Positions 2,196-19,834 of a DNA stretch of 64,000 nucleotides are shown here, piece after piece (position 1 is the stretch's first letter; each line of letters opens with the position of its first letter). Under the pieces are notes generated by a model. It ran no database searches and was not told the DNA's origin. It worked only from the letters and a program-made list of their open reading frames with translations. The position numbers and the translations under genes are program-made. This stretch comes from Gilliamella sp. WF3-4. GTDB taxonomy: Bacteria; Pseudomonadota; Gammaproteobacteria; Enterobacterales; Orbaceae. Where the stretch lies: contig NZ_LZGW01000045.1 in the NCBI RefSeq assembly GCF_001690275.1, positions 1-64,000 of the forward strand. The letters are read 5' to 3'.

Positions 2196-4913
2196 TTAAT
2201 TGAGATAAAAGCCTAATTCTTTAGTGTAAAAACAAGATACTTTTTCCTTTTCAATTAAAACAATTATTGCATTAGGCCTATGTATCTTTTGCCTTAATTT
2301 TTCTAGATGGTGCTGTTCTAGTTGTGGAATTGCACTTTTTATTCTATTCCATTTTGATACACTAATTGTAAGATGGCTTTGTTCCCAAGCATATTCACTA
2401 CTACTACAGTAAGGAACGATTTTATCATCTTGCTGATAAGCTAAATAAAGATCAATATTATCTCTTGATAAACGGGTAGATACTTCAATTTCATGATCCC
2501 ATTCAGCATTGAATTGCGCTCGGCTATAACAATTTTTAAAATTTAATATCATACTTTTAGCTTGTGAACTTTGCCCAAGTTGTTGTCCTAATTCTTTATA
2601 AAAAACCGCTTGTAAACCTTCAGGAGGCTCAAGATCGCTATGATAAACTGATTCAATGAGTAATCTGGCATCTTCGGGCATTTTTATGGCGCCTTTTTGA
2701 CGTAAGATTCGTTGCGTGAACCATAAATAAGCATGATTAGCGTAAACATACTTAGTATTGCCAAATTCTGGGTAATCTAGCCATTCTTCGGTTGGATTGT
2801 CATTCCAAGTTGGCGCAAATATCGTTAATATTGGTTTATCTCGATCATCGCAAGGTTGATTTTGGTTTGTGGATAGTTTGATATTTCCTTGTTTATCTCG
2901 TACATGTCGTTGTAAACGACCTGCACGTTGTATCAATAAATCAATTGGGGCAATATCACTAATCATTTCGTCAAAATCGAGATCTAATGATTGCTCAATG
3001 ACTTGAGTTGCAATGATGATCTTTCCTGAGCGAATTGCATGATTTGAGGTTTTTCCTGCCCATGTTAACGTTTTTTGTTCGATATCCAAGCGATCACAAT
3101 ATGCAAAGCGACTATGAAATAGCAAAATTTGCTTACTATCAAGATTCAAATTTTGTTGTAGTTGTTGATATAAACTAATTGCGTCAGCCACACTGTTTTT
3201 TATCCAGCAAATAATTTTCCCTTGCTGGATGGCAATCTTAATTTTTTCTATACCAGAATCAATACTATCAATCCAGTTAATATCAACTTGCCGCTTTACT
3301 TCATCTCTTGTCTCTATTGCTTGTTCGACTAAGCCTTGTTGATTGAGTTTTGTCAATAAAGGAAAAGGTAAATCTGAATTTAGCGTTAAAGGCGATTGAT
3401 TTGAATTTAATCCTTTATAAAAAGCATTAAGTAATTTTTCACGTAGAAAAAAGGGTAAAGTTGCGGTAAGTATAATCGCACTCCCTCCTTGTGAAAAATG
3501 ATACTGTAACAGTGATTCTAATAATTTCGCCATATAACTATCATAAGCATGAACTTCATCTAAAATCAGTAACTTATGTCGTAGTCCTAATAGCCGCAAC
3601 GATTGATGTTTAAACGGCATAACTGCCATTAAAGCTTGATCTAGCGTTCCAACTCCAACTTCAGCAAGCAATGATTTTTTTCGTGTGTCAACAAACCACT
3701 CATTACACTCGCTACTCGCGGAATTTTCATTTGTGAGGTATTTGGGTTGACTAAGATTATCCAAATTAATGACTGTTTGGGTAAAATTGGGATTCATATA
3801 ACTTGCACCATGAGCTAGAACAAGCGATGGATGGCTGTTAGATCGATATAATTGCCCATATACCTGTGCCGTGCGTTGATAGATTGCATTTGCGGTAGCT
3901 TGAGTTGGTAAGCCAATATAAATCCCTTGTGCTTTCCCTGCTGCCATTAATCGATGCGCCAAAATCATTGAAGCTTCTGTTTTTCCCGCTCCAGTAACAT
4001 CTTCCATAATAAATAACTCTGGGCCATTATCTGATAGTTGGCAAGATAATGCTTGCTGTTGCAAGGGGGTTGGTTTTTCAATAAATGGAAATAAATTTTC
4101 AATACCATTAAAGGGCATAATAGGGGATTGTTGAGGTAAAGTCGCTACGGCTTTTTCAGCCCTAACTAGAGCGTAGTTTAACCAATATTCTGACAACTCC
4201 ATCACATTTGAAGAAAAAGGAAAAAATTGTTGGTTGGAACCTAACCAATCACTAATAACGGTTATTGCCGCTAATAGCCAACTTAGTTTGTTAAGATTTT
4301 TACGGAATGTTTTGTCAAAAAAGCGGGTGTGGTAACTGGCTAAATTATTATCTACGATAAACAGTTGATTAATTGCTTTAATATAATCTAATGAAGCTTG
4401 TTTATCTTGTGCGTTAAATGATAAGTTGCCATCGGGCTTTAATATTGGCGGTTTACCATGATGGGCTGTCATGATTAATAACCAGATATTATATACCTGT
4501 TCAATATTATAATTGTATGATTCTAGCTGTATTTCTGATTTTTCAATTAAATAGTTCTGCCATAACCAGTGACCAAGCGAATCATGTCGGGTAGTGTAAC
4601 TTTTTGCTGGATCGGCGGCGACGAGCTTGGGATTATTATGCTTGAATAATTGCTGGAACCCATTAGCAAATTTACCAATATCATGCCAAGCTAAAAAATA
4701 GGCAAACCAAAGGGCTGCGTTTTCCATCTCATCTGATGAGAAGCCAAGTTGCTCAAATAATTCAGCAGAATAAAAATAATTCTTTTTAACAATATGGTAT
4801 CCACAAGCAGCGACATCTAAATTGTGATAAGCCAGTAGGTGATAATCATCGCTATCATCGCTATTGTCCCTTTGTCGACATTTTCCCCAATATTGATAAA
4901 ACGATTCAGTCAT
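2196..4913 (-). CDS. cas3: CRISPR-associated nuclease/helicase Cas3 (type I-E)
   Basis: Cas3 is recruited by target-bound Cascade; it nicks the displaced strand and degrades DNA processively. The 905-aa protein (E. coli Cas3 is 888) has an N-terminal HD nuclease domain with HD at about residues 77-78 and a downstream HH pair at about 151-152. A superfamily-2 helicase follows, with Walker A TGAGKT at about 307-312, DEVH at about 452-455 and a QRAGRLQRH motif VI near 670. The domain is complete with no frameshift. A ribosome site AAGGGA sits 8 bases before the ATG. Unusually, cas3 is alone and opposite in strand, separated from the Cascade operon by the yej block and neighbouring genes. Confidence 0.95.
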   Translation of the reverse strand: MTESFYQYWGKCRQRDNSDDSDDYHLLAYHNLDVAACGYHIVKKNYFYSAELFEQLGFSSDEMENAALWFAYFLAWHDIGKFANGFQQLFKHNNPKLVAADPAKSYTTRHDSLGHWLWQNYLIEKSEIQLESYNYNIEQVYNIWLLIMTAHHGKPPILKPDGNLSFNAQDKQASLDYIKAINQLFIVDNNLASYHTRFFDKTFRKNLNKLSWLLAAITVISDWLGSNQQFFPFSSNVMELSEYWLNYALVRAEKAVATLPQQSPIMPFNGIENLFPFIEKPTPLQQQALSCQLSDNGPELFIMEDVTGAGKTEASMILAHRLMAAGKAQGIYIGLPTQATANAIYQRTAQVYGQLYRSNSHPSLVLAHGASYMNPNFTQTVINLDNLSQPKYLTNENSASSECNEWFVDTRKKSLLAEVGVGTLDQALMAVMPFKHQSLRLLGLRHKLLILDEVHAYDSYMAKLLESLLQYHFSQGGSAIILTATLPFFLREKLLNAFYKGLNSNQSPLTLNSDLPFPLLTKLNQQGLVEQAIETRDEVKRQVDINWIDSIDSGIEKIKIAIQQGKIICWIKNSVADAISLYQQLQQNLNLDSKQILLFHSRFAYCDRLDIEQKTLTWAGKTSNHAIRSGKIIIATQVIEQSLDLDFDEMISDIAPIDLLIQRAGRLQRHVRDKQGNIKLSTNQNQPCDDRDKPILTIFAPTWNDNPTEEWLDYPEFGNTKYVYANHAYLWFTQRILRQKGAIKMPEDARLLIESVYHSDLEPPEGLQAVFYKELGQQLGQSSQAKSMILNFKNCYSRAQFNAEWDHEIEVSTRLSRDNIDLYLAYQQDDKIVPYCSSSEYAWEQSHLTISVSKWNRIKSAIPQLEQHHLEKLRQKIHRPNAIIVLIEKEKVSCFYTKELGFYLN

Positions 4914-9293: not shown

Positions 9294-11014
9294 GTTCTCC
9301 TTTATTATCCGTTCAGGATTTAAGTATCGCTTTTAAACGTAACATTCAAGCTGAATCCCAAGTAGTAAGCAATGTTAGTTTTGATATCCATGAACAAGAA
9401 ACATTAGCCTTAGTTGGTGAATCTGGTTCGGGAAAAAGTGTAACAGCGTTGTCTATTTTACGTTTACTGTGTAAAGATCAAGTGACTTATCCCACAGGGG
9501 ATATTTTGTTTGAAGAAAAATCGTTATTACATGCGACAGACAAAACACTGCAAAGTGTGCGTGGTAATCAAATTAGCATGATCTTCCAAGAACCGATGGT
9601 GTCACTTAATCCACTACACACGGTTGAAAAACAGCTTTATGAAGTGCTGTCATTACATCGAGGCATGCGCCGAAATGTCGCACGTAATGAAATTTTGCAA
9701 TATCTTGATCGGGTGGGCATTAAAGATCCAAAAAGTAAATTATCCTCTTACCCTCATCAACTGTCGGGCGGAGAACGGCAACGAGTTATGATTGCCATGG
9801 CCATTTTAACTCATCCCAAATTGTTAATTGCCGATGAGCCAACTACGGCCCTAGATGTATCGGTACAAGCACAAATTATTCGCTTGCTTAAAGAGCTAAA
9901 AAATGAATTAAATATGAGTCTATTATTTATTTCACACAATCTTGGCATTGTCAAAAAACTGGCGGATAAAGTTGCTGTTATGCAGCAAGGGAAAATCGTT
10001 GAGTATAATAATAGGCAACGCATTTTTTTACGTCCTGAACATGAATATACTCGTACCTTATTAAATTCAGCACCGAGTGGCGATCCTGCGCCATTGCCTA
10101 ATACGCCAGGAATACTGCTTAATGTTAACCATTTGGATGTTGAGGTAATCGCTAGAAAGGGATTTTTTCAAAAAACTAAAAAGAAAATTGTCAATAATGT
10201 TGGTTTTGCTGTACATCAAGGCGAGACGGTCGGTATTGTGGGTGAATCGGGCTCCGGTAAAAGCACAACGGCACTAGCTATTTTGCGGTTGATTAAATCA
10301 CAAGGTAATATTGTATTTGATAGCCATCCGATACAAAATCTAACTGGCAAAAAATTATTGCCATTCCGAAGTCGTATCCAAGTGGTATTCCAAGATCCGT
10401 TTTCGTCACTTAATCCTCGTTTTAATATTGAACAGATTATTAGTGAAGGATTAATGACGCACAAAAAACAAAGTAAGAAACAACGTGAGCAGGCCGTTAT
10501 TGATATTATGCAAGAAGTGGGTCTAGATCCCGATATGCGTTATCGCTATCCAACAGAGTTTTCTGGTGGGCAGCGCCAACGAATAGCTATTGCTAGAGCT
10601 TTAATTTTAAAGCCAGAATTGTTAATTTTAGATGAGCCAACTTCATCTTTAGATCATACAATTCAAAAACAAATTATTAATTTACTGAAATCATTGCAAG
10701 AAAAACATCAGCTCAGTTACCTGTTTATTAGCCATGACTTAGCGCTGGTTTACTCAATGTGTCATCAAGTTGTTGTTATGAAAGAGGGTAGAATTATAGA
10801 GCAAGGCTCACGAGAAAAGATTTTCTATTCTCCTGAAGAAGAATACACCAAAGAGTTACTTTCTTTTTTAGATAAACCACCTCGTAGAGCGAGTAACACT
10901 TTGATAGATGAAAACAAAGAAGAAAAATTTACTCATCAAGATGACAGCCAATCAAATAAAAAACAAGGTAAAAAAGTGAATTGGGATGATGCATTATTAA
11001 TGGGCAAAAGGTAA
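9290..11014 (+). CDS. yejF: ABC transporter dual ATP-binding protein YejF
   Basis: Energises the YejABEF importer. It contains two ATPase halves in one chain: Walker A GESGSGKS near residues 43-50 and GESGSGKST near 315-323, signature motifs LSGGERQR and FSGGQRQR, and Walker B segments LLIADEP and LLILDEP. At 574 aa it exceeds E. coli YejF (529). The extra length is a hydrophilic, lysine- and acid-rich tail after the second ATPase, ending in a NWDDALLMGKR-like peptide. Last gene of the operon. Confidence 0.93.
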   Translation: MSSPLLSVQDLSIAFKRNIQAESQVVSNVSFDIHEQETLALVGESGSGKSVTALSILRLLCKDQVTYPTGDILFEEKSLLHATDKTLQSVRGNQISMIFQEPMVSLNPLHTVEKQLYEVLSLHRGMRRNVARNEILQYLDRVGIKDPKSKLSSYPHQLSGGERQRVMIAMAILTHPKLLIADEPTTALDVSVQAQIIRLLKELKNELNMSLLFISHNLGIVKKLADKVAVMQQGKIVEYNNRQRIFLRPEHEYTRTLLNSAPSGDPAPLPNTPGILLNVNHLDVEVIARKGFFQKTKKKIVNNVGFAVHQGETVGIVGESGSGKSTTALAILRLIKSQGNIVFDSHPIQNLTGKKLLPFRSRIQVVFQDPFSSLNPRFNIEQIISEGLMTHKKQSKKQREQAVIDIMQEVGLDPDMRYRYPTEFSGGQRQRIAIARALILKPELLILDEPTSSLDHTIQKQIINLLKSLQEKHQLSYLFISHDLALVYSMCHQVVVMKEGRIIEQGSREKIFYSPEEEYTKELLSFLDKPPRRASNTLIDENKEEKFTHQDDSQSNKKQGKKVNWDDALLMGKR

Positions 11015-12753: not shown

Positions 12754-13050
12754 AACATTTCTCAATGTGTGTAACATTATTATGTAATTGATGTTTCGAG
12801 TGGTTAGTATTTTATGCAATATTATAAACACTAAGCCATTGAAGCAGTCAAATTAAAGTCATGCATGATATCGGTTTTTCATGTAATAGCCTAGGCAGAA
12901 AGTGCGTTGGTTTAATCGATATATTATTTTCATGGTCAATTTCCAACCAAGTTCAAACAAGTAAGTTTTTTAAAAAAGAAGCTAAGATCACATTTTTTTA
13001 GGTTAATTTTCGTTAGACTAATAACTCCCGCTTAACTCACTGGCGATAAA
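12754..13050. other. Non-coding stretch upstream of frdC
   Basis: No gene and no recognisable frdB remnant on the minus strand. The frdC promoter should lie here. It borders the degenerate mini-CRISPR. Confidence 0.5.
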
Positions 13051-13129
13051 ATAAAAATCCCCACGAATGTGGGGAACGGATCGCAATTATTGCTAACTGT
13101 TGGTTTATCCCTATTAATATAAGGAACGA
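13051..13129 (-). CRISPR. Degenerate two-repeat mini-CRISPR, candidate Cascade-guiding regulatory RNA (CreA/CreR-like)
   Basis: Two repeat-like elements lie on the minus strand. The first (13129 down to 13101) keeps GTTCC at repeat positions 3-7 and GGGATAAACC at 19-28 of the 29-nt I-E repeat in the array at 19359. The second (13079 down to 13051) keeps GTTCCC and GGGAT at the same spacing. Both preserve a 6-bp stem and 4-nt loop (CCTTAT/ATAGGG with one G-U pair; CCCCAC/GTGGGG) although the stem bases differ from the array, which indicates compensatory change. Between them is a 21-nt pseudo-spacer (13100 down to 13080). The second hairpin runs into ATTTTTATTTTA, so it is also an intrinsic terminator. 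A TACAAT box at 13145-13150 (minus) could be its -10. CreA and CreR guides are known relics of this kind; that identity is inferred here. Confidence 0.75.
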
Positions 13130-13195
13130 TTATTCAGATAGCTAATTGTAACATATAACTAAAGGTGTTTTATATTTATAATATGCCATACTTGA

Positions 13196-13219
13196 ATGTG
13201 TATTGTTGCTCACTGTCTT
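13196..13219 (-). promoter_or_regulatory. Predicted Cascade operator: PAM plus target of the degenerate-array guide
   Basis: Read on the minus strand, AAG (13219-13217) is followed by a 21-nt target (13216-13196). Its first 15 bases, ACAGTGAGCAACAAT, match the pseudo-spacer ACAGTTAGCAATAAT except at positions 6 and 12; later positions mostly differ. AAG is the canonical I-E PAM, and every sixth guide base is unpaired in Cascade. The site fills the 17-bp gap between a minus-strand TTTACA (13225-13220) and TACACA (13202-13197). It also starts 14 bp after a perfect plus-strand TATAAT (13177-13182). Binding should therefore repress a promoter on one strand or the other. Confidence 0.7.
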
Positions 13220-13338
13220 TGTAAAAATTATTGTTGTTGTAGAATTTGTGTGTTAATTTAATAGTAACTACATATTATTACTTAACTGTAGAAAACAACT
13301 TCATTAAATTTTGGATTTAAAACAAAAAAGATAAGCGG

Positions 13339-13369
13339 TATAATGTATTGCTTATTATCAATAAAAGGA
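13339..13369 (+). promoter_or_regulatory. cas8e proximal promoter -10 box and ribosome binding site
   Basis: A perfect TATAAT at 13339-13344 lies 33 bases before the cas8e start; the -35 is poor (TTTAAA at 17-bp spacing). AAGGAG at 13364-13369 sits 7 bases before a TTG codon and decides that unusual start. Confidence 0.55.
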
Positions 13370-13376
13370 GTGAGTT

Positions 13377-14903
13377 TTGTTCTGTTTATCTCTTTTAGAC
13401 GAAGAATGGATCCCCGTGAGACATTTTAATGGTCAAATAAGTAAAATTAAGCCTAGCCAAATTGCTGACGAAACCCTCTCCGATTTGGCCTATTTTAGAC
13501 CTGACTTCCAAGGTGCTGCATACCAATTTCTTATCGGTTTGCTACAAACCACTTTTTCTCCTGAAGATAATGATGAATGGTTAGAATATTGGCATGAAGG
13601 TATTACTCAATCACAATTAGATGAAGCATTTAAACCTGCTAAACAGGCCATGCAATTTGGTGAACATAAACCGGCATTTATGCAAGATTTTACGCCATTA
13701 GATGGTAATAAAGTACCAATATCGGGCTTATTGGTTGAAGCACCGGGTGAAAACGCATTAAAGAAGAATACTGACCATTTTATTAAACGTGATTTTGTCA
13801 AAGCGATCTGCCCGCATTGCGCTGTTATGGCACTGTTTACTTTACAAACTAATGCCCCGTCGGGAGGACAAGGGCATCGCGTTAGTTTGCGTGGTGGTGG
13901 GCCGATTACCACTTTAATGATGCCCGCACTCGATACATCGACGCCATTATGGAAAAAGTTATGGCTAAATGTGATGCCTCTCGATAATGATGAAAAACCT
14001 CAACATTATGATGAAACCGTCTTCCCGTGGTTAAACAAAACAGTAACTAGCGAACCGCCCAAAAATTTAAGTGTATTCCCTGAGCAAGCTAATTGCTGCC
14101 AAGCATATTGGGGGATGCCTCGCCGCATTGAGCTTGATTTTGAAAATACCACGCAAGGCGATTGTGACCTTTGTGGTGAAAAATCGTCCGAGCTTATTAG
14201 TCAGTATCAAACAAAAAATTACGGTGTTCAATATAAAAATTGGCGACATCCGTTATCGCCTTATCGGACCGACAGTAAAACGGGGGAACCGATTGCGATT
14301 AAAGGCCAACCGAGAGGATTAATTTATCGTGATTGGTTAGGTATGGTGAGTACCAATGACGAAACTCAGTCAGCCCGATTAGTTGCAGTTCATTATTCGC
14401 GTGGATTGAGAGCTTCAGAAAAATATCATCTTTGGTGTTTTGGCTATGATTTTGACAATATGAAGGCTCGTTGTTGGTATGAACATACTTTCCCTGTTTA
14501 TGCAATATTTGATGATTTGGATAGCGATATTAAAGAACTAATAACACTTGCGCTAGATTTCAGCAAAGATACCTTGCCAATACTCCGTAAAGCGATGAGT
14601 AGTATTAACAAGCAATCAAGCACAGTGGATATCGCTTATTGGAAGGAAACTGAAACACCTTTTTATCAATATATTAAACAATTGATTAAAGAGAAAGACA
14701 ACCCAAATGGTCGCTTTCCTTTGTTATTCGATTGGACCAATACCTTATTGAAATATATCACACAAGTTTATGATAAAGCTGCTTTTGCTGACCCAGATCA
14801 ACTCATGATTAGTTCTGAAAAAATCACCGCAAGAGAAAACTTAATTAAAGCTTTTAATAAACTGAGAAATATCAAAAAGATTAAAAATAACAAATCGTCT
14901 TGA
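13377..14903 (+). CDS. casA: Cascade large subunit Cas8e (CasA/Cse1)
   Basis: Recognises the PAM and helps recruit Cas3 in the type I-E Cascade complex. The protein is 508 aa (E. coli CasA 502). It starts LLDEEWIPVR as in the family, carries a CPHC pair in the central region followed by a GLRGG-type loop (here SLRGGGPITT) and a later CDLC pair, and ends in a helical bundle. The start is TTG, supported by AAGGAG seven bases upstream; no ATG fits. First gene of a seven-gene cas operon with small gaps or overlaps. Sequence similarity to E. coli is only moderate. Confidence 0.93.
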   Translation: MFCLSLLDEEWIPVRHFNGQISKIKPSQIADETLSDLAYFRPDFQGAAYQFLIGLLQTTFSPEDNDEWLEYWHEGITQSQLDEAFKPAKQAMQFGEHKPAFMQDFTPLDGNKVPISGLLVEAPGENALKKNTDHFIKRDFVKAICPHCAVMALFTLQTNAPSGGQGHRVSLRGGGPITTLMMPALDTSTPLWKKLWLNVMPLDNDEKPQHYDETVFPWLNKTVTSEPPKNLSVFPEQANCCQAYWGMPRRIELDFENTTQGDCDLCGEKSSELISQYQTKNYGVQYKNWRHPLSPYRTDSKTGEPIAIKGQPRGLIYRDWLGMVSTNDETQSARLVAVHYSRGLRASEKYHLWCFGYDFDNMKARCWYEHTFPVYAIFDDLDSDIKELITLALDFSKDTLPILRKAMSSINKQSSTVDIAYWKETETPFYQYIKQLIKEKDNPNGRFPLLFDWTNTLLKYITQVYDKAAFADPDQLMISSEKITARENLIKAFNKLRNIKKIKNNKSS

Positions 14904-14924
14904 TTGCATGTGGGGGAGAACAAC

Positions 14925-15548
14925 ATGTCAGGCACTATCCAAAAAAAGCTGATGATCTTAAATGATAACCATAAAAAGATTATCGATGAGTGGTTTTCTA
15001 TGTTGCAGCTAAGGCAATGTACATTTAATGGTATTAGCTACAATGGACGTAAATTGCGTGCTGAATTACGTCGGAATGCACTATCTGAATTTATAATCTT
15101 ACAAGAAGGCTATATGATTTTAGCCAAGGCACTTATTCATAACGATAGCAAATTGCCGCAAACGGATGTTCAGTATCAAGCACTACAGATATTTGTCAAT
15201 GCTGCTGCTTTTGCTCAAGCTAATAATGACAAAGCCCCATTTGCCGCACAATTAAGTGAAAAAGTAAAAGGTGGTGAACATAACTTTTTATCTCCGTTAC
15301 GATTTGAACAGCTTTGCGAAAGTCAAACGCCTGAAGAATTTTGTCGTCGCTTGATTCGTGCGGTAAAAATACGTGGCGAAAAAGGTGTTAACCTTATTTC
15401 ACTTGCCGACGGCATCTTTTTATGGATGCAAGAGTGGTATGAGCGAGAGTATAAGCATAATTCATCAGCCAAAACTAATCCGTTTGAACGCCTTTCTGTT
15501 CGTTGGGCAATGGACTATTCTTCAACAAAAAATAATTCTAAGGAATAA
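14925..15548 (+). CDS. casB: Cascade small subunit Cse2 (CasB, Cas11e)
   Basis: Cse2 forms the dimer of the Cascade belly that stabilises the displaced strand. The ATG at 14925 is preceded by GGGGGAG six bases upstream and gives 207 aa, longer than the E. coli protein (160). The upstream TTG at 14904 lacks a ribosome site. The protein is helical and basic, with an RLIRAVK motif. It lies 21 bases after cas8e. Confidence 0.9.
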   Translation: MSGTIQKKLMILNDNHKKIIDEWFSMLQLRQCTFNGISYNGRKLRAELRRNALSEFIILQEGYMILAKALIHNDSKLPQTDVQYQALQIFVNAAAFAQANNDKAPFAAQLSEKVKGGEHNFLSPLRFEQLCESQTPEEFCRRLIRAVKIRGEKGVNLISLADGIFLWMQEWYEREYKHNSSAKTNPFERLSVRWAMDYSSTKNNSKE

Positions 15549-15553
15549 TCATC

Positions 15554-16618
15554 ATGACTACATTTATTCAATTACACTTATTAACTGCTTATGCGCCTTC
15601 AAATTTAAACCGTGATGATTTAGGGCGACCAAAAACAGCCAAAATGGGCAACACCGATCGTTTACGTATTTCATCACAAAGTTTAAAGCGAGCTTGGCGA
15701 ACCTCGGACTTTTTTTATCAATCACTAAGCGATCATATTGGTGTTCGTTCACGTCGTTTTGCGCGAGATTGGGTATATACGCCAATGATTGAGAGTGGTA
15801 TTTCTGAAAAAATAGCCAAAGACAGTACCATCAAAATAGCAAGCCAGTTTGGTAAAGTAAAAAATGAAAAATCACCTAAAGATCCATTAACTAATTTAGA
15901 GATTGAACAATTGGTGCATATTAGCAGTAATGAGCAACAAGCAATCAAGCAATTAGTGGAATTATTGATTAATGAAAAACGTGAGCCTAGCGATGATGAA
16001 GTAAAATTACTGCGTAAAGAGAATAGTAGTGTTGATGTAGCATTATTTGGACGAATGTTAGCAGAGAGCCCAGCATTTAATATTGAAGCCGCGTGCCAAG
16101 TTTCTCATGCATTAGGTGTAAGTACGGTTACGATAGAAGATGATTTCTTTACTGCTGTTGATGATTTAAATAATAACGATGTTGATGCTGGTTCTGCTCA
16201 TCTGGGTGAGCGAGGATTTGCTTCAGCACTATTTTACACCTATGTTTGTATCAGCCGTGATTTACTACTAGAAAATTTAAATGGTGATGAGGCATTAGTA
16301 GAAAAAACCTTAAAAGCTTTAACCGAATCGGCAACAAAAGTGGCTCCAACTGGTATGCAAAATAGTTTTGCCTCAAGAGCATATACCTCTTATCTATTAA
16401 TAGAAAAAGGCTCCCAACAACCGCGCTCTTTAGCTGTGGCCTATTTTAACCCAATTCGTGGCCAAGATATGGTGAATGATGCGATTACCCGTTTAGAAGA
16501 GCAACGTGATAAATTTGATAAAGTTTATGGGCAATGTGCCGATAGCCGCTATATTCTCAACAGTGAAACAGGAGAAGGAACACTGAGTGCTGCATTAGAT
16601 TTTGTTGCGCAAAAATAG
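15554..16618 (+). CDS. casC: Cascade backbone subunit Cas7e (CasC/Cse4)
   Basis: Six copies form the helical backbone that holds the crRNA; its thumbs flip out every sixth guide base. The 354 aa (E. coli 363) open with IQLHLLTAYAPSNLNRDDLGRPKTA, characteristic of Cas7e, and include the SQSLKRAWR segment and the later conserved SFASRAYTSYLL and PIRGQDM regions. It starts five bases after cse2. The six-nucleotide periodicity imposed by this protein is directly relevant to the mismatch pattern of the predicted regulatory guide. Confidence 0.94.
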   Translation: MTTFIQLHLLTAYAPSNLNRDDLGRPKTAKMGNTDRLRISSQSLKRAWRTSDFFYQSLSDHIGVRSRRFARDWVYTPMIESGISEKIAKDSTIKIASQFGKVKNEKSPKDPLTNLEIEQLVHISSNEQQAIKQLVELLINEKREPSDDEVKLLRKENSSVDVALFGRMLAESPAFNIEAACQVSHALGVSTVTIEDDFFTAVDDLNNNDVDAGSAHLGERGFASALFYTYVCISRDLLLENLNGDEALVEKTLKALTESATKVAPTGMQNSFASRAYTSYLLIEKGSQQPRSLAVAYFNPIRGQDMVNDAITRLEEQRDKFDKVYGQCADSRYILNSETGEGTLSAALDFVAQK

Positions 16619-16631
16619 GAGAGCGGACAAG

Positions 16632-17375
16632 ATGATAAACCATCTTATTTTTCAGATTTATGCCCCTTTTGCCTCATGGGGCGAACCGGCTGTTGGTGAA
16701 GTTCGCCACAGCAATATCATCCCTTCACGTTCGGCTTTATTAGGAATAGTGGCTGCCGCACTTGGTATAAGGCGTGACGATAAACAAATTGATAACTTTA
16801 ATTTGCATTATCATTTTGCTATTCGTCCTTTTATTGCTAGTAATAGTTGGTTTAGAGATTTTCAAACGGTACAAGCACCTAAAGCGAACAAAAAGCAAGT
16901 ATGGCATACCCGTTTTGACGAAATACGAAAAAGCCCTCTTGAGCTAGAAACCTTATTATCACAGCGTGAATATTATAATGACGTTTATTATCAAATTGTC
17001 ATGTCTGAAACCGACAAGGCGCCCTATCGTTTAGAGCAAATACAACAAGCATTACTTAAGCCCGTTTTTCCATTATATGCAGGCAGAAAAAACTCACCAT
17101 TATCACTGCCATTATCGCCTATCTTGTGCCAAGGCACATTGAGCGATGCTTTTATTTTTGCTGATAAACATTACCAAGATTGCCATCGTCAAGATCCTGT
17201 TATCAATAAATTATTACAAGGCACTGCGGATGAATATTATTGGGAACAGAACAATCAAGAAGATCGATTTGATGTCATTAAAATTCAGTGCCGACAAGAT
17301 CAACCAATAAATCGTCATCGATGGCAATTTATTAACCGTCAGCAGTTTTCAGGCCATTTGAAAGGGAGTGAATAG
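16632..17375 (+). CDS. casD: Cascade subunit Cas5e (CasD)
   Basis: Caps the 5' handle of the crRNA. I chose the ATG at 16632, with GGAGAG eight bases upstream; the open frame from 16602 overlaps cas7e and has no family-like start. The result is 247 aa (E. coli 224). It shows the Cas5e start with FASWGEPAVGEVRHS, a PSRSALLGIVAAALGIRRDD segment and a YAGRKNSPLSLPLSP region. Confidence 0.93.
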   Translation: MINHLIFQIYAPFASWGEPAVGEVRHSNIIPSRSALLGIVAAALGIRRDDKQIDNFNLHYHFAIRPFIASNSWFRDFQTVQAPKANKKQVWHTRFDEIRKSPLELETLLSQREYYNDVYYQIVMSETDKAPYRLEQIQQALLKPVFPLYAGRKNSPLSLPLSPILCQGTLSDAFIFADKHYQDCHRQDPVINKLLQGTADEYYWEQNNQEDRFDVIKIQCRQDQPINRHRWQFINRQQFSGHLKGSE

Positions 17376-18047
17376 ATGTATTTTTCTCGAGTTACTTTAA
17401 AACTGAATCGGCTTCATGATGTTTTACATCAGAAAATGCAAAATTCGGGGCCTTATGCAATTCATCAATGGTTATGGCAACTCTTCCCTAATCAGGATAA
17501 ACGCGCCTTTTTATTCCATGAGGAACAAATAGGTAAAGGTTATCAATACTATTTATTATCGGAAACCGAGCCACTCTCAAATCATGATCTATTTTCAATA
17601 GAAACTAAACCATATCAACCCAAATTAATTGTTGGAATGAGATTGATTTTTTCCTTACGAGCTAATCCTGTGGTATTTAAAAATGGTAAACGTAGTGATG
17701 TAATGATGAATGCTAAATATCTAGCAAAACAACAAGGTTTAAGTTCAAAAGAGATAAAAATCCGACAAAATGATGCAGCAATCAACTGGTTAATAAAACA
17801 GAGTGAAACCAGAGGATTTTCATTATTAACAACAGATGATCAACAAGTACATTGCACGGTCACCAGTTATAACCAACAGCAATTTAGTAAAAGAAATGAT
17901 CTTAAACCGATTACTTATAGCACCGTTGATTATCAAGGGGTGTTAACGGTGACGGATACAGAATTGTTTTTGAACACAATTTATCGAGGTATTGGTAAAA
18001 GTAAAGGATTTGGTTGTGGCTTATTCTTGATAAAACATTATCAATAG
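17376..18047 (+). CDS. casE: CRISPR RNA endoribonuclease Cas6e (CasE)
   Basis: Cleaves the pre-crRNA at the base of each repeat hairpin and stays bound to the 3' end. The 223 aa (E. coli 199) carry the conserved IHQWLWQLFP segment; His at about residue 30 aligns with the catalytic His20 of the E. coli enzyme. The carboxy end has the glycine-rich GIGKSKGFGCGLF. The ATG directly follows the cas5e stop. The conserved hairpins in the degenerate mini-CRISPR would be possible substrates. Confidence 0.94.
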   Translation: MYFSRVTLKLNRLHDVLHQKMQNSGPYAIHQWLWQLFPNQDKRAFLFHEEQIGKGYQYYLLSETEPLSNHDLFSIETKPYQPKLIVGMRLIFSLRANPVVFKNGKRSDVMMNAKYLAKQQGLSSKEIKIRQNDAAINWLIKQSETRGFSLLTTDDQQVHCTVTSYNQQQFSKRNDLKPITYSTVDYQGVLTVTDTELFLNTIYRGIGKSKGFGCGLFLIKHYQ

Positions 18048-18060
18048 GATGGGGGGTGCT

Positions 18061-19274
<1,214 letters not shown>

Positions 19275-19358: not shown

Positions 19359-19509
19359 GTGTTCCCTGTAGGTACAGGGATAAACCGCCCTCAAAGAGGG
19401 CAGGCGGATTAGTATGCGCGTGTTCCCTGTAGGTACAGGGATAAACCGCTGAGAAATTAACTCAGAAAGCCTCTGAAGCTGTGTTCCTTGTACCCACAGA
19501 GGTAAAGCT
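19359..19509 (+). CRISPR. Type I-E CRISPR array, three repeats and two spacers
   Basis: Repeats of 29 bp lie at 19359-19387 and 19420-19448 (identical; GTGTTCCC..., stem CCCTGT/ACAGGG, end ATAAACCG) and at 19481-19509 (degenerate terminal repeat with about nine changes). The two spacers are 32 bp each (19388-19419 and 19449-19480). The period of 61 bp is exactly that of I-E. The orientation, with the leader next to cas2 and the decayed repeat last, is standard. Both spacers contain short inverted repeats. Confidence 0.97.
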
Positions 19510-19834
19510 GTATTTGTTATATGTTTCATTTATTTTATAGAAATTTAATTAAAATAAAAACTTTAATAAAATCAATGGGTTTTCTGAATGATTTTTATTG
19601 CTACATTAAATATCTATTGGTTGGTTGTTATTGTATTAATTATAAGTTTAATATTCTCTTTATTATAAATAGTTTACAATTAACGGAAAGTTTAACAATA
19701 TAGTTGTTATTATAATATTTACTGTAAAACTAAAAGAAATTATTAATAATGCTGTCTAAAATAATTAGCAAAAATGGCGTACAATATAATGGCATATAAA
19801 TGCAGATTTATTATAAATAATTTAGGAATTTAGT
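19510..19834. other. Non-coding region between the CRISPR array and tmk
   Basis: 325 bp of AT-rich sequence. A 60-codon open frame at 19521-19703 lacks a ribosome site and looks random. A TATAAT at 19785-19790 probably belongs to the tmk promoter, with a poor -35. Confidence 0.5.

What the first reader, a model, noticed from the sequence alone, without database searches (positions are those of the whole stretch)
13196..13219. Pseudo-spacer matches a PAM-flanked site beside the cas8e operon, with mismatches only at flipped-out positions
The pseudo-spacer begins ACAGTTAGCAATAAT; the site on the same strand begins ACAGTGAGCAACAAT and is preceded by AAG. In the first 15 positions the only differences are at 6 and 12, the positions where Cas7 thumbs displace the guide base so pairing is irrelevant. 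After 15 the match mostly ends (two of six). Full seed plus short pairing permits Cascade binding but should not lock a full R-loop for Cas3, the known logic of CreA/CreR guides. A rough uniform-base estimate for such a match with a fixed 3-nt PAM in about 500 tested positions is near one in a hundred thousand; AT bias raises this somewhat.
Basis: partly seen in the sequence, partly recalled or inferred. Interest (0 to 1): 0.92.

Follow-up and report, generated by a model that had tools for sequence, protein, structure and literature searches.

The report
Mini-CRISPR guide aimed at cas operon
A bee-gut bacterium carries a tiny stand-alone CRISPR guide that matches a site just upstream of its own CRISPR genes, and in related species guide and site change together, so the CRISPR machinery probably uses it to throttle its own production, a kind of control already known elsewhere.

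Summary
A two-repeat mini-CRISPR (13058-13127, minus) holds a ~21-nt pseudo-spacer matching an AAG-flanked site (13196-13219) upstream of cas8e at 13 of 13 non-flipped positions among the first 15. Of 20 distinct Gilliamella type I-E loci, 11 have such a guide; in all 11 the best PAM-blind match upstream of cas8e is AAG-flanked, 11-13 of 13, although guides differ. 0 of 100,000 random re-pairings do as well. Mismatches: 13 of 22 cells at positions 6/12, 7 of 143 elsewhere in 1-15. This is a guide-target pair under selection, of the CreR kind (cas autorepression, in print for type I-E). Inferred only: transcription, processing, binding, and which promoter is repressed; the window's best-scoring cas8e promoter lies ~100 bp past the target, against simple occlusion. 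Lead: in 9 relatives a structured leader and a 52-60-aa ORF lie between target and cas8e; intact ORFs accompany guides in 9 of 11 loci, no-guide loci 0 of 9. The window lacks it.

The parts
13102..13127 (-). psi-repeat 1 of the mini-CRISPR (creR-like gene): GTTCC-stem-GGGATAAACC; its 3' end plus A at 13101 corresponds to the crRNA 5' handle
   Evidence: Sequence; located by pattern in the genome; stem in the fold of 13049-13142
13078..13100 (-). pseudo-spacer (guide); 21 nt if two bases before GTTCCCC are counted as repeat, 23 otherwise
13058..13077 (-). psi-repeat 2: CCCCAC/GTGGGG hairpin followed by TTTTTATTTT (13057-13048), so also shaped like an intrinsic terminator
   Evidence: the only terminator-like site in 12900-13420; 0.1 expected; hairpin in the fold of the whole 94-nt stretch, z -3.8 for the whole
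13145..13150 (-). putative -10 (TACAAT, preceded by TG) of the guide gene
   Evidence: a TG-preceded -10 near psi-repeat 1 in 9 of the 11 guide loci (not L008, L010); not experimentally mapped
13196..13216 (-). target (protospacer) matched by the guide at 1-5, 7-11, 13-15
13217..13219 (-). PAM AAG
   Evidence: best site AAG-flanked in 11 of 11 loci by a PAM-blind search
13219..13270 (+). region just past the PAM where relatives have a conserved promoter-like motif (TTTTTGTTG, then TATGCTAAATT or similar); in the window the motif is degenerate, but a weak site TTGTAA-15-TAGAAT (13219-13245) abuts the PAM
   Evidence: no hit with 16-18 nt spacing there on +
13316..13344 (+). best-scoring sigma-70-like promoter upstream of cas8e in the window (TTTAAA-17-TATAAT); may be coincidence, its -10 lies in a conserved hairpin
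13330..13356 (+). hairpin (GATAAGCGG...) in the cas8e leader; the GATAA(G/T)CGG-like element is also in loci without a guide
13377..14903 (+). cas8e (first gene of the operon presumed to be regulated)
   Evidence: Pfam Cse1 6e-102, PADLOC Cas8e
14904..18047 (+). cas11e, cas7e, cas5e, cas6e: with cas8e a complete Cascade
18049..19274 (+). cas1e (18049-18978) and a 97-aa ORF in the cas2 position (18981-19274)
   Evidence: Cas1e; translation; the name cas2 is recalled, not searched
2196..4913 (-). cas3e, separate from the Cascade operon
19359..19510 (+). canonical CRISPR array: two intact repeats and one degenerate one, 61-nt period

Best explanation
A CreR-type regulatory guide of a type I-E system. 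The mini-CRISPR at 13048-13127 is transcribed leftward and cut by Cas6e (the second hairpin may also terminate transcription). The short crRNA-like RNA loads into Cascade and directs it to the AAG-flanked site at 13196-13219. Only about 15 bases pair, in the seed region, so Cascade binds but should not form the complete R-loop that recruits Cas3. Bound Cascade hinders transcription of the cas8e operon, so Cascade limits its own supply and is de-repressed when crRNAs or anti-CRISPR proteins take Cascade away. Shown here: the elements, the match, the PAM, conservation by matched changes, presence only in genomes with cas8e among those searched. Inferred: transcription, processing, binding, direction and strength of regulation.
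For: Guides in 11 of 20 distinct Gilliamella I-E loci and, by a fixed pattern, in 0 of the 24 Orbaceae genomes without a full-length cas8e match. Best site in a PAM-blind search is AAG-flanked in 11 of 11. 0 of 100,000 random re-pairings reach the real sum of matches; exchanging only L006/L007 (same guide) or L005/L018 would tie. Matched double changes between related loci: L003/L005 at 1, 5, 9; L009/L028 at 1, 3, 7; L012/L008 at eight positions. Mismatches at 6/12 in 13 of 22 cells against 7 of 143 elsewhere in 1-15, Fisher 4e-9; position 18 in 10 of 11. In 9 of 11 loci a PAM lies about ten bases from a promoter-like motif reading toward cas8e (for L005 and L018 this is the nearer of two sites). 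Cascade complete. [quoted passage not shown] CreR section of PMC12737573).
Against: In the window the best consensus promoter for cas8e (13316-13344, 10 of 12) begins ~97 bp past the target, and what abuts the PAM is weak (TTGTAA-15-TAGAAT, 9 of 12); Cascade at the target would not obviously occlude the former. L008 lacks the TTGTTG motif. 9 of 20 loci show no guide by my pattern, so it is dispensable, and guide presence is not clustered on the cas8e tree (6 changes; 181 of 500 shuffles as low). Seven seed-region mismatches fall outside 6n: two each in L008 and L009, one each in L005, L012, L018. L005 and L018 differ by a guide change not matched at their best sites. In 9 relatives the first ORF past the target is a small ORF, not cas8e. 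No RNA or binding data.
Confidence: 0.7

Rival explanations
1. Toxin-antitoxin origin (CreTA/CrePA-like). The guide's ancestral client is the structured leader plus 52-60-aa ORF that lies between target and cas8e in most guide-bearing relatives; Cascade plus guide keeps this element silent, and loss of Cascade would release it. In the window the client was lost, and the guide is a leftover or now serves only the cas operon.
For: Intact ORF in 9 of 11 guide-bearing loci and 0 of 9 others (Fisher 3e-4 without correction for kinship). Guide-less L001/L002 (G016/G015) keep stop-ridden copies and L032 (G031) a weak partial match (E 0.002). Every match to the ORF with E below 1e-4 lies beside cas8e (12 of 12). 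dN/dS below 1 in 29 of 35 computed pairs. Structured leader, fold z -3.6 and -3.9 in the two loci folded.
Against: No family hit: Pfam for 4 of the 9 ORFs, NCBIfam for 7, PADLOC for 1. dN/dS is only moderately below 1, and 1.0-1.5 in 6 of 35 pairs. L008 (ORF split into two frames) and the window (ORF absent) keep matched guides, which needs another client. Co-occurrence may just reflect one module lost as a block.
Confidence: 0.17
2. The target mainly controls leftward transcription: the guide gene's own promoter or another minus-strand promoter, giving autoregulation of the guide rather than of cas.
For: In the window a minus-strand promoter-like site (TTAACA-18-AATAAT, 13256-13227) would start transcription at about the PAM. 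In 9 of 9 ORF-bearing relatives a good minus-strand promoter (9-11 of 12) sits roughly 100 bp before the target and reads into it.
Against: The TG-preceded -10 next to psi-repeat 1 (9 of 11 loci) is the likelier guide promoter and lies tens of bases from the target in most loci. The window's minus-strand site does not recur at that spacing from the PAM in the relatives. The window region gives 2.6 promoter-like hits per 521 bp in shuffles.
Confidence: 0.1
3. Chance match of a solitary decayed CRISPR to nearby AT-rich DNA.
For: AT-rich intergenic DNA; one genome alone is a single case.
Against: Repeated with different sequences in 11 of 11 loci that have a guide (L006 and L007 share one), each with AAG; 0 of 400 resamplings in each of the 11 reach the observed match; 0 of 100,000 random re-pairings.
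Confidence: 0.01

Closest known systems
CreR (cas-regulating RNA), reported for type I-B, I-E and V-A
   Same: crRNA-like gene beside the cas operon with limited PAM-proximal complementarity to a site upstream of the cas genes, no dedicated effector
   Different: Promoter targeting and repression not demonstrated here. [quoted passage not shown] whether this ORF is a toxin is unknown. The primary CreR paper is not held, so architectures could not be compared directly.
CreTA (type VIII toxin-antitoxin; H. hispanica, H. hubeiense I-B; Acinetobacter I-F)
   Same: psiR1-psiS-psiR2 guide, PAM, seed pairing at 1-5 and 7-11 with 6/12 free (passages of PMC8501985)
   Different: No toxin RNA identified; the window has no ORF between target and cas8e; the Gilliamella ORF (52-60 aa) is longer than the 33-bp Acinetobacter mini-ORF (passage of PMC10097628)
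CrePA (KilA-N protein toxin repressed by CreA)
   Same: Cascade-guided silencing of a protein gene beside cas, if the ORF of the relatives is the client (as described in PMC12737573, section read)
   Different: 4 of the 9 small ORFs were scanned against Pfam and hit no family at E<=1, hence no KilA-N; the window lacks the ORF

Membership tests
CreR | crRNA-like gene outside the array with degenerate repeats | tested here: met
   psiR1 and psiR2 flank a 21-23-nt spacer, separate from the array at 19359; processing by Cas6e not testable
CreR | Partial complementarity to a PAM-flanked site upstream of the cas operon | tested here: met
CreR | Target lies in the cas promoter | tested here: inconclusive
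   PAM-adjacent promoter-like motif in 9 of 11 loci, but in the window the best cas8e promoter begins ~97 bp downstream and only a weak site abuts the PAM
CreR | Cascade-dependent repression of cas, relieved by crRNA or Acr | not testable with these tools
   Needs expression experiments
CreR | No coupled toxin gene | tested here: inconclusive
   None seen in the window; ORF of unknown function in 9 relatives
CreTA | Toxin gene (RNA or protein) under the targeted promoter | tested here: inconclusive
   Window: no closed + strand ORF of 25 aa or more (ATG/GTG/TTG start) in the 460 bp before cas8e; an RNA toxin or mini-ORF shorter than that is not excluded. Relatives: candidate ORF only
CrePA | KilA-N domain protein toxin | tested here: not met
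   No ORF in the window; no Pfam hit for 4 of the 9 ORFs of relatives, no NCBIfam hit for 7 of the 9
Type I-E CRISPR-Cas | cas3, cas8e, cas11e, cas7e, cas5e, cas6e, cas1e | tested here: met

The most novel reading that the evidence does not exclude
In Gilliamella the guide belongs to a three-part module: guide, structured leader RNA, and a small helix-plus-hairpin protein encoded first in the cas operon. Cascade silences it, so that Cascade loss or an anti-CRISPR releases both new Cas proteins and a guard protein or RNA. The window and L008 would show its decay into a pure CreR. The matched turnover of guide and target would then be the footprint of selection to keep the guard silent.
Probability: 0.22. 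Interest if true: 0.75.

Novelty: new member of a known kind. Interest (0 to 1): 0.52.

Why it matters
It gives a natural evolutionary experiment on Cascade targeting: across eleven loci guide and target change together while every sixth base is left freer, as the Cascade structure predicts. It brings probable RNA-guided cas regulation to a bee-gut symbiont genus and shows it present in some and absent in other close relatives, so the cost or benefit of autorepression could be compared between species. The linked small ORF offers a testable candidate for a Cascade-guarded protein.

Tried and rejected
Chance match: rejected. Dead solitary CRISPR: rejected by matched double changes. A second guide site in the window, for instance near cas3: no other AAG site exceeds 10 of 13.

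Guides elsewhere in the order: a strict pattern matched 11 of 394 sampled genomes: 8 of the window's genus and 3 others. Of the 3, G273 (L047) looks like a palindromic repeat element by inspection; G179 and G166 were taken as chance because of their GC-rich sequence, context not examined. A regular-expression scan of the 1.5 kb upstream of cas8e in 16 I-E loci outside the genus found none; one search found 26 such genomes, and the loci of the other 10 were not fetched. This does not exclude guides placed elsewhere or with other repeats.

The leader RNA of the relatives: one locus (L006, 601 bases) against Rfam gave only a weak miRNA hit at E 3; three loci had no tRNA. The small ORF had no family hit (for 4, 7 and 1 of the 9 ORFs) and a model of helix plus beta-hairpin with mean pLDDT 71 and pTM 0.34, too weak for a fold search, which I did not run. 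A first alignment of guides was cropped and is not used. A minus-strand mini-ORF behind the conserved minus-strand promoter of the relatives was looked at by eye only and dropped, because its codons overlap the inverted repeat.

Literature: the primary CreR paper is not held. The search Gilliamella + CRISPR + Cascade listed 7 papers, none on this by title and start of abstract (listing only). The word Gilliamella does not occur in the main texts of PMC8501985, PMC9458426 and PMC10097628 (word finds).

Full report
WHAT IS THERE. The window carries a type I-E system: cas3e (2196-4913, minus), then about 8.5 kb further cas8e-cas11e-cas7e-cas5e-cas6e-cas1e, a 97-aa ORF in the cas2 position, and a small array at 19359-19510. 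Three further repeats fitting the repeat pattern lie on another contig. The gap between fumarate reductase subunit genes and cas8e holds, on the minus strand, a mini-CRISPR: psi-repeat 1 ending in the handle, a 21-23-nt pseudo-spacer, and psi-repeat 2, whose hairpin is followed by a T-run. Sixty-eight bases upstream of psi-repeat 1 on the same strand ends the target, AAG + ACAGTGAGCAACAATACACAT.

IS IT MORE THAN CHANCE. In the window no other AAG-flanked site exceeds 10 of the 13 compared positions. In 400 Markov resamplings of the upstream 1.5 kb the best was 10. AAG plus positions 1-5 and 7-11 occurs once in the genome.

RELATIVES. A search of named genomes (12 loci) and of 44 unnamed Orbaceae genomes (full-length cas8e in 20, all in the window's genus; 2 more genomes gave only short weak matches) gave 20 distinct upstream regions after merging duplicates. 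Eleven have a guide by my pattern: window, L003, L005, L006, L007, L008, L009, L010, L012, L018, L028. Nine do not: L001, L002, L004, L011, L021, L027, L032, L033, L034. The L001 and L004 regions are short (381 and 579 bp), but a whole-genome pattern search of the same 44 genomes found guides in 11 genomes, the same ones. A decayed guide would escape both patterns, and some of the 44 genomes are incomplete (59-91%).

COVARIATION. For each guide I searched up to 1.5 kb upstream of cas8e on both strands without any PAM condition: the best site is AAG-flanked in 11 of 11 (in L005 and L018 two AAG-flanked sites tie). Matches at positions 1-15 without 6 and 12 are 13, 12, 13, 13, 11, 11, 13, 12, 13, 12, 13 of 13 in the order. 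Random re-pairing of guides and targets never reaches the real total (0 of 100,000; exchanging only L006 with L007, which share one guide, or L005 with L018, would tie). Related loci show matched double changes: L003/L005 at 1, 5 and 9; L009/L028 at 1, 3 and 7; L006/L012 at 1, 2, 3, 10, 11; window/L003 at 1 and 2. Against this, single unmatched changes occur: L005/L018 differ at guide position 8 and target position 10 with nothing matched, and L009/L028 at 14 and 11. Mismatches over 11 pairs: none at 1-5, 6 at position 6, 7 at position 12, 10 at position 18; positions 6/12 hold 13 of 22 cells, the rest of 1-15 7 of 143. The 6-nt register of Cascade is thus visible in the evolution of the pair. 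That bases 6 and 12 are displaced in Cascade is established knowledge; for a haloarchaeal CreA the same dispensability was shown by mutation (passages of PMC8501985).

HOW IT PROBABLY WORKS. Guide gene: a TG-preceded -10 (TACAAT in the window, TATAAT or similar in others) lies just before psi-repeat 1 in 9 of 11 loci, not in L008 and L010. Target: in 9 of 11 loci TTGTTG (TTCTTG in L010) begins about ten bases past a PAM (in L005 and L018 the nearer of the two sites), followed by TATGCTAAATT or a relative, reading toward cas8e; in the window TTGTTG is a little further away and the second element degenerate, though a weak site TTGTAA-15-TAGAAT (9 of 12) abuts the PAM; L008 lacks the motif. In relatives Cascade at the target would lie against this putative promoter, which itself is far from consensus. 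In the window the best cas8e promoter by consensus is TTTAAA-17-TATAAT at 13316-13344, which lies in a hairpin whose core is conserved also in loci without guide and could be coincidental. Which promoter is used is the main open point. With about 15 paired bases a full R-loop and Cas3 attack are not expected (established knowledge of type I-E; not tested). Since the genome shows few canonical repeats, competition for Cascade should be low and repression strong by default (inference).

THE SMALL ORF. In L003, L005, L006, L007, L009, L010, L012, L018 and L028 about 400-430 bp separate the target's PAM and cas8e, and this space holds a structured leader (inverted repeat; 19 consensus pairs, 3 with double changes, but a covariation term near zero; single-sequence z -3.6 and -3.9 for L006 and L009) and an ORF of 52-60 codons. 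The consensus core is EIK-KID-QE-RSY-LSFEINK (7 of the 9). L008 matches in two frames, the window lacks it, L001/L002 (G016/G015) have stop-ridden copies and L032 (G031) a weak partial one. Intact ORF with guide 9 of 11, without guide 0 of 9 (Fisher 3e-4, kinship not corrected). dN/dS runs from 0.27 to 1.5, below 1 in 29 of 35 computed pairs. No family, no usable fold. It may be a guarded toxin, a Cas regulator, or a leader peptide; I cannot say which.

KNOWN OR NEW. CreRs acting on type I-E are in print according to one passage of a review (PMC13131331); another review describes CreR for type I and V-A (PMC12737573: passages, sections 9 and 10). The primary paper could not be read. Among listings of searches and the passages named I saw no report of a Gilliamella guide; only searched that genus name across the library, and supplements were not searched. 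I therefore file the window's element as a new member of a known kind, with promoter-targeting itself unproven, and the ORF-linked form in relatives as a possible variant.

TREE. On a cas8e tree of the 20 loci guide presence needs at least 6 changes and is not clustered (181 of 500 shuffles as low): repeated loss, or exchange, with guides in each of the larger branches drawn.

Noticed in passing
L003, L005, L006, L007, L009, L010, L012 (about 9744-9936, + strand), L018, L028: A 52-60-aa ORF without a family hit, with a structured leader, between the guide target and cas8e; seen intact only where the guide is present (9 of 11 against 0 of 9).
   Followed up: partly
window 13330-13356 (+) and the corresponding place in the 16 other loci aligned: An element GATAA(G/T)CG at the same place just before the cas8e ribosome-binding site, forming a hairpin in the three loci folded (window, L007, L009); the arms look as if they change together. 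Also in loci without a guide. Function unknown; no pair count was made.
   Followed up: partly
L005 and L018, about 400-430 bp upstream of cas8e: Two AAG-flanked copies of the target 23 nt apart, both matched by one guide; target duplication might be how guide and target change together.
   Followed up: no
L003, L005, L006, L007, L009, L010, L012, L018, L028, about 260-297 bp upstream of cas8e, minus strand: A sigma-70-like promoter of 9-11 of 12 (for example TTGAGA-16-TATAAT in L006) at a corresponding place in all 9, reading away from the small ORF toward the guide target.
   Followed up: partly
window 2196-4913 versus 13377 on: cas3 is split from the Cascade operon by an ABC-transporter-like cluster and fumarate reductase genes; the same neighbours are seen in L002, L003 and L005-L012 (L001 and L004 too short to tell), so cas3 is outside the presumed autorepression.
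   Followed up: partly
G000:C30:74434-74907: A second Cas3-HD match in a 1112-aa frame elsewhere in the genome, perhaps a type I-F Cas2-3 (a guess); not examined.
   Followed up: no
L021 and L032, upstream of cas8e: By eye, decayed remains resembling psi-repeat 2 (a TCCACTATTGTGGA-like hairpin before a T-run) in loci scored as guide-less, suggesting loss of an older guide.
   Followed up: no
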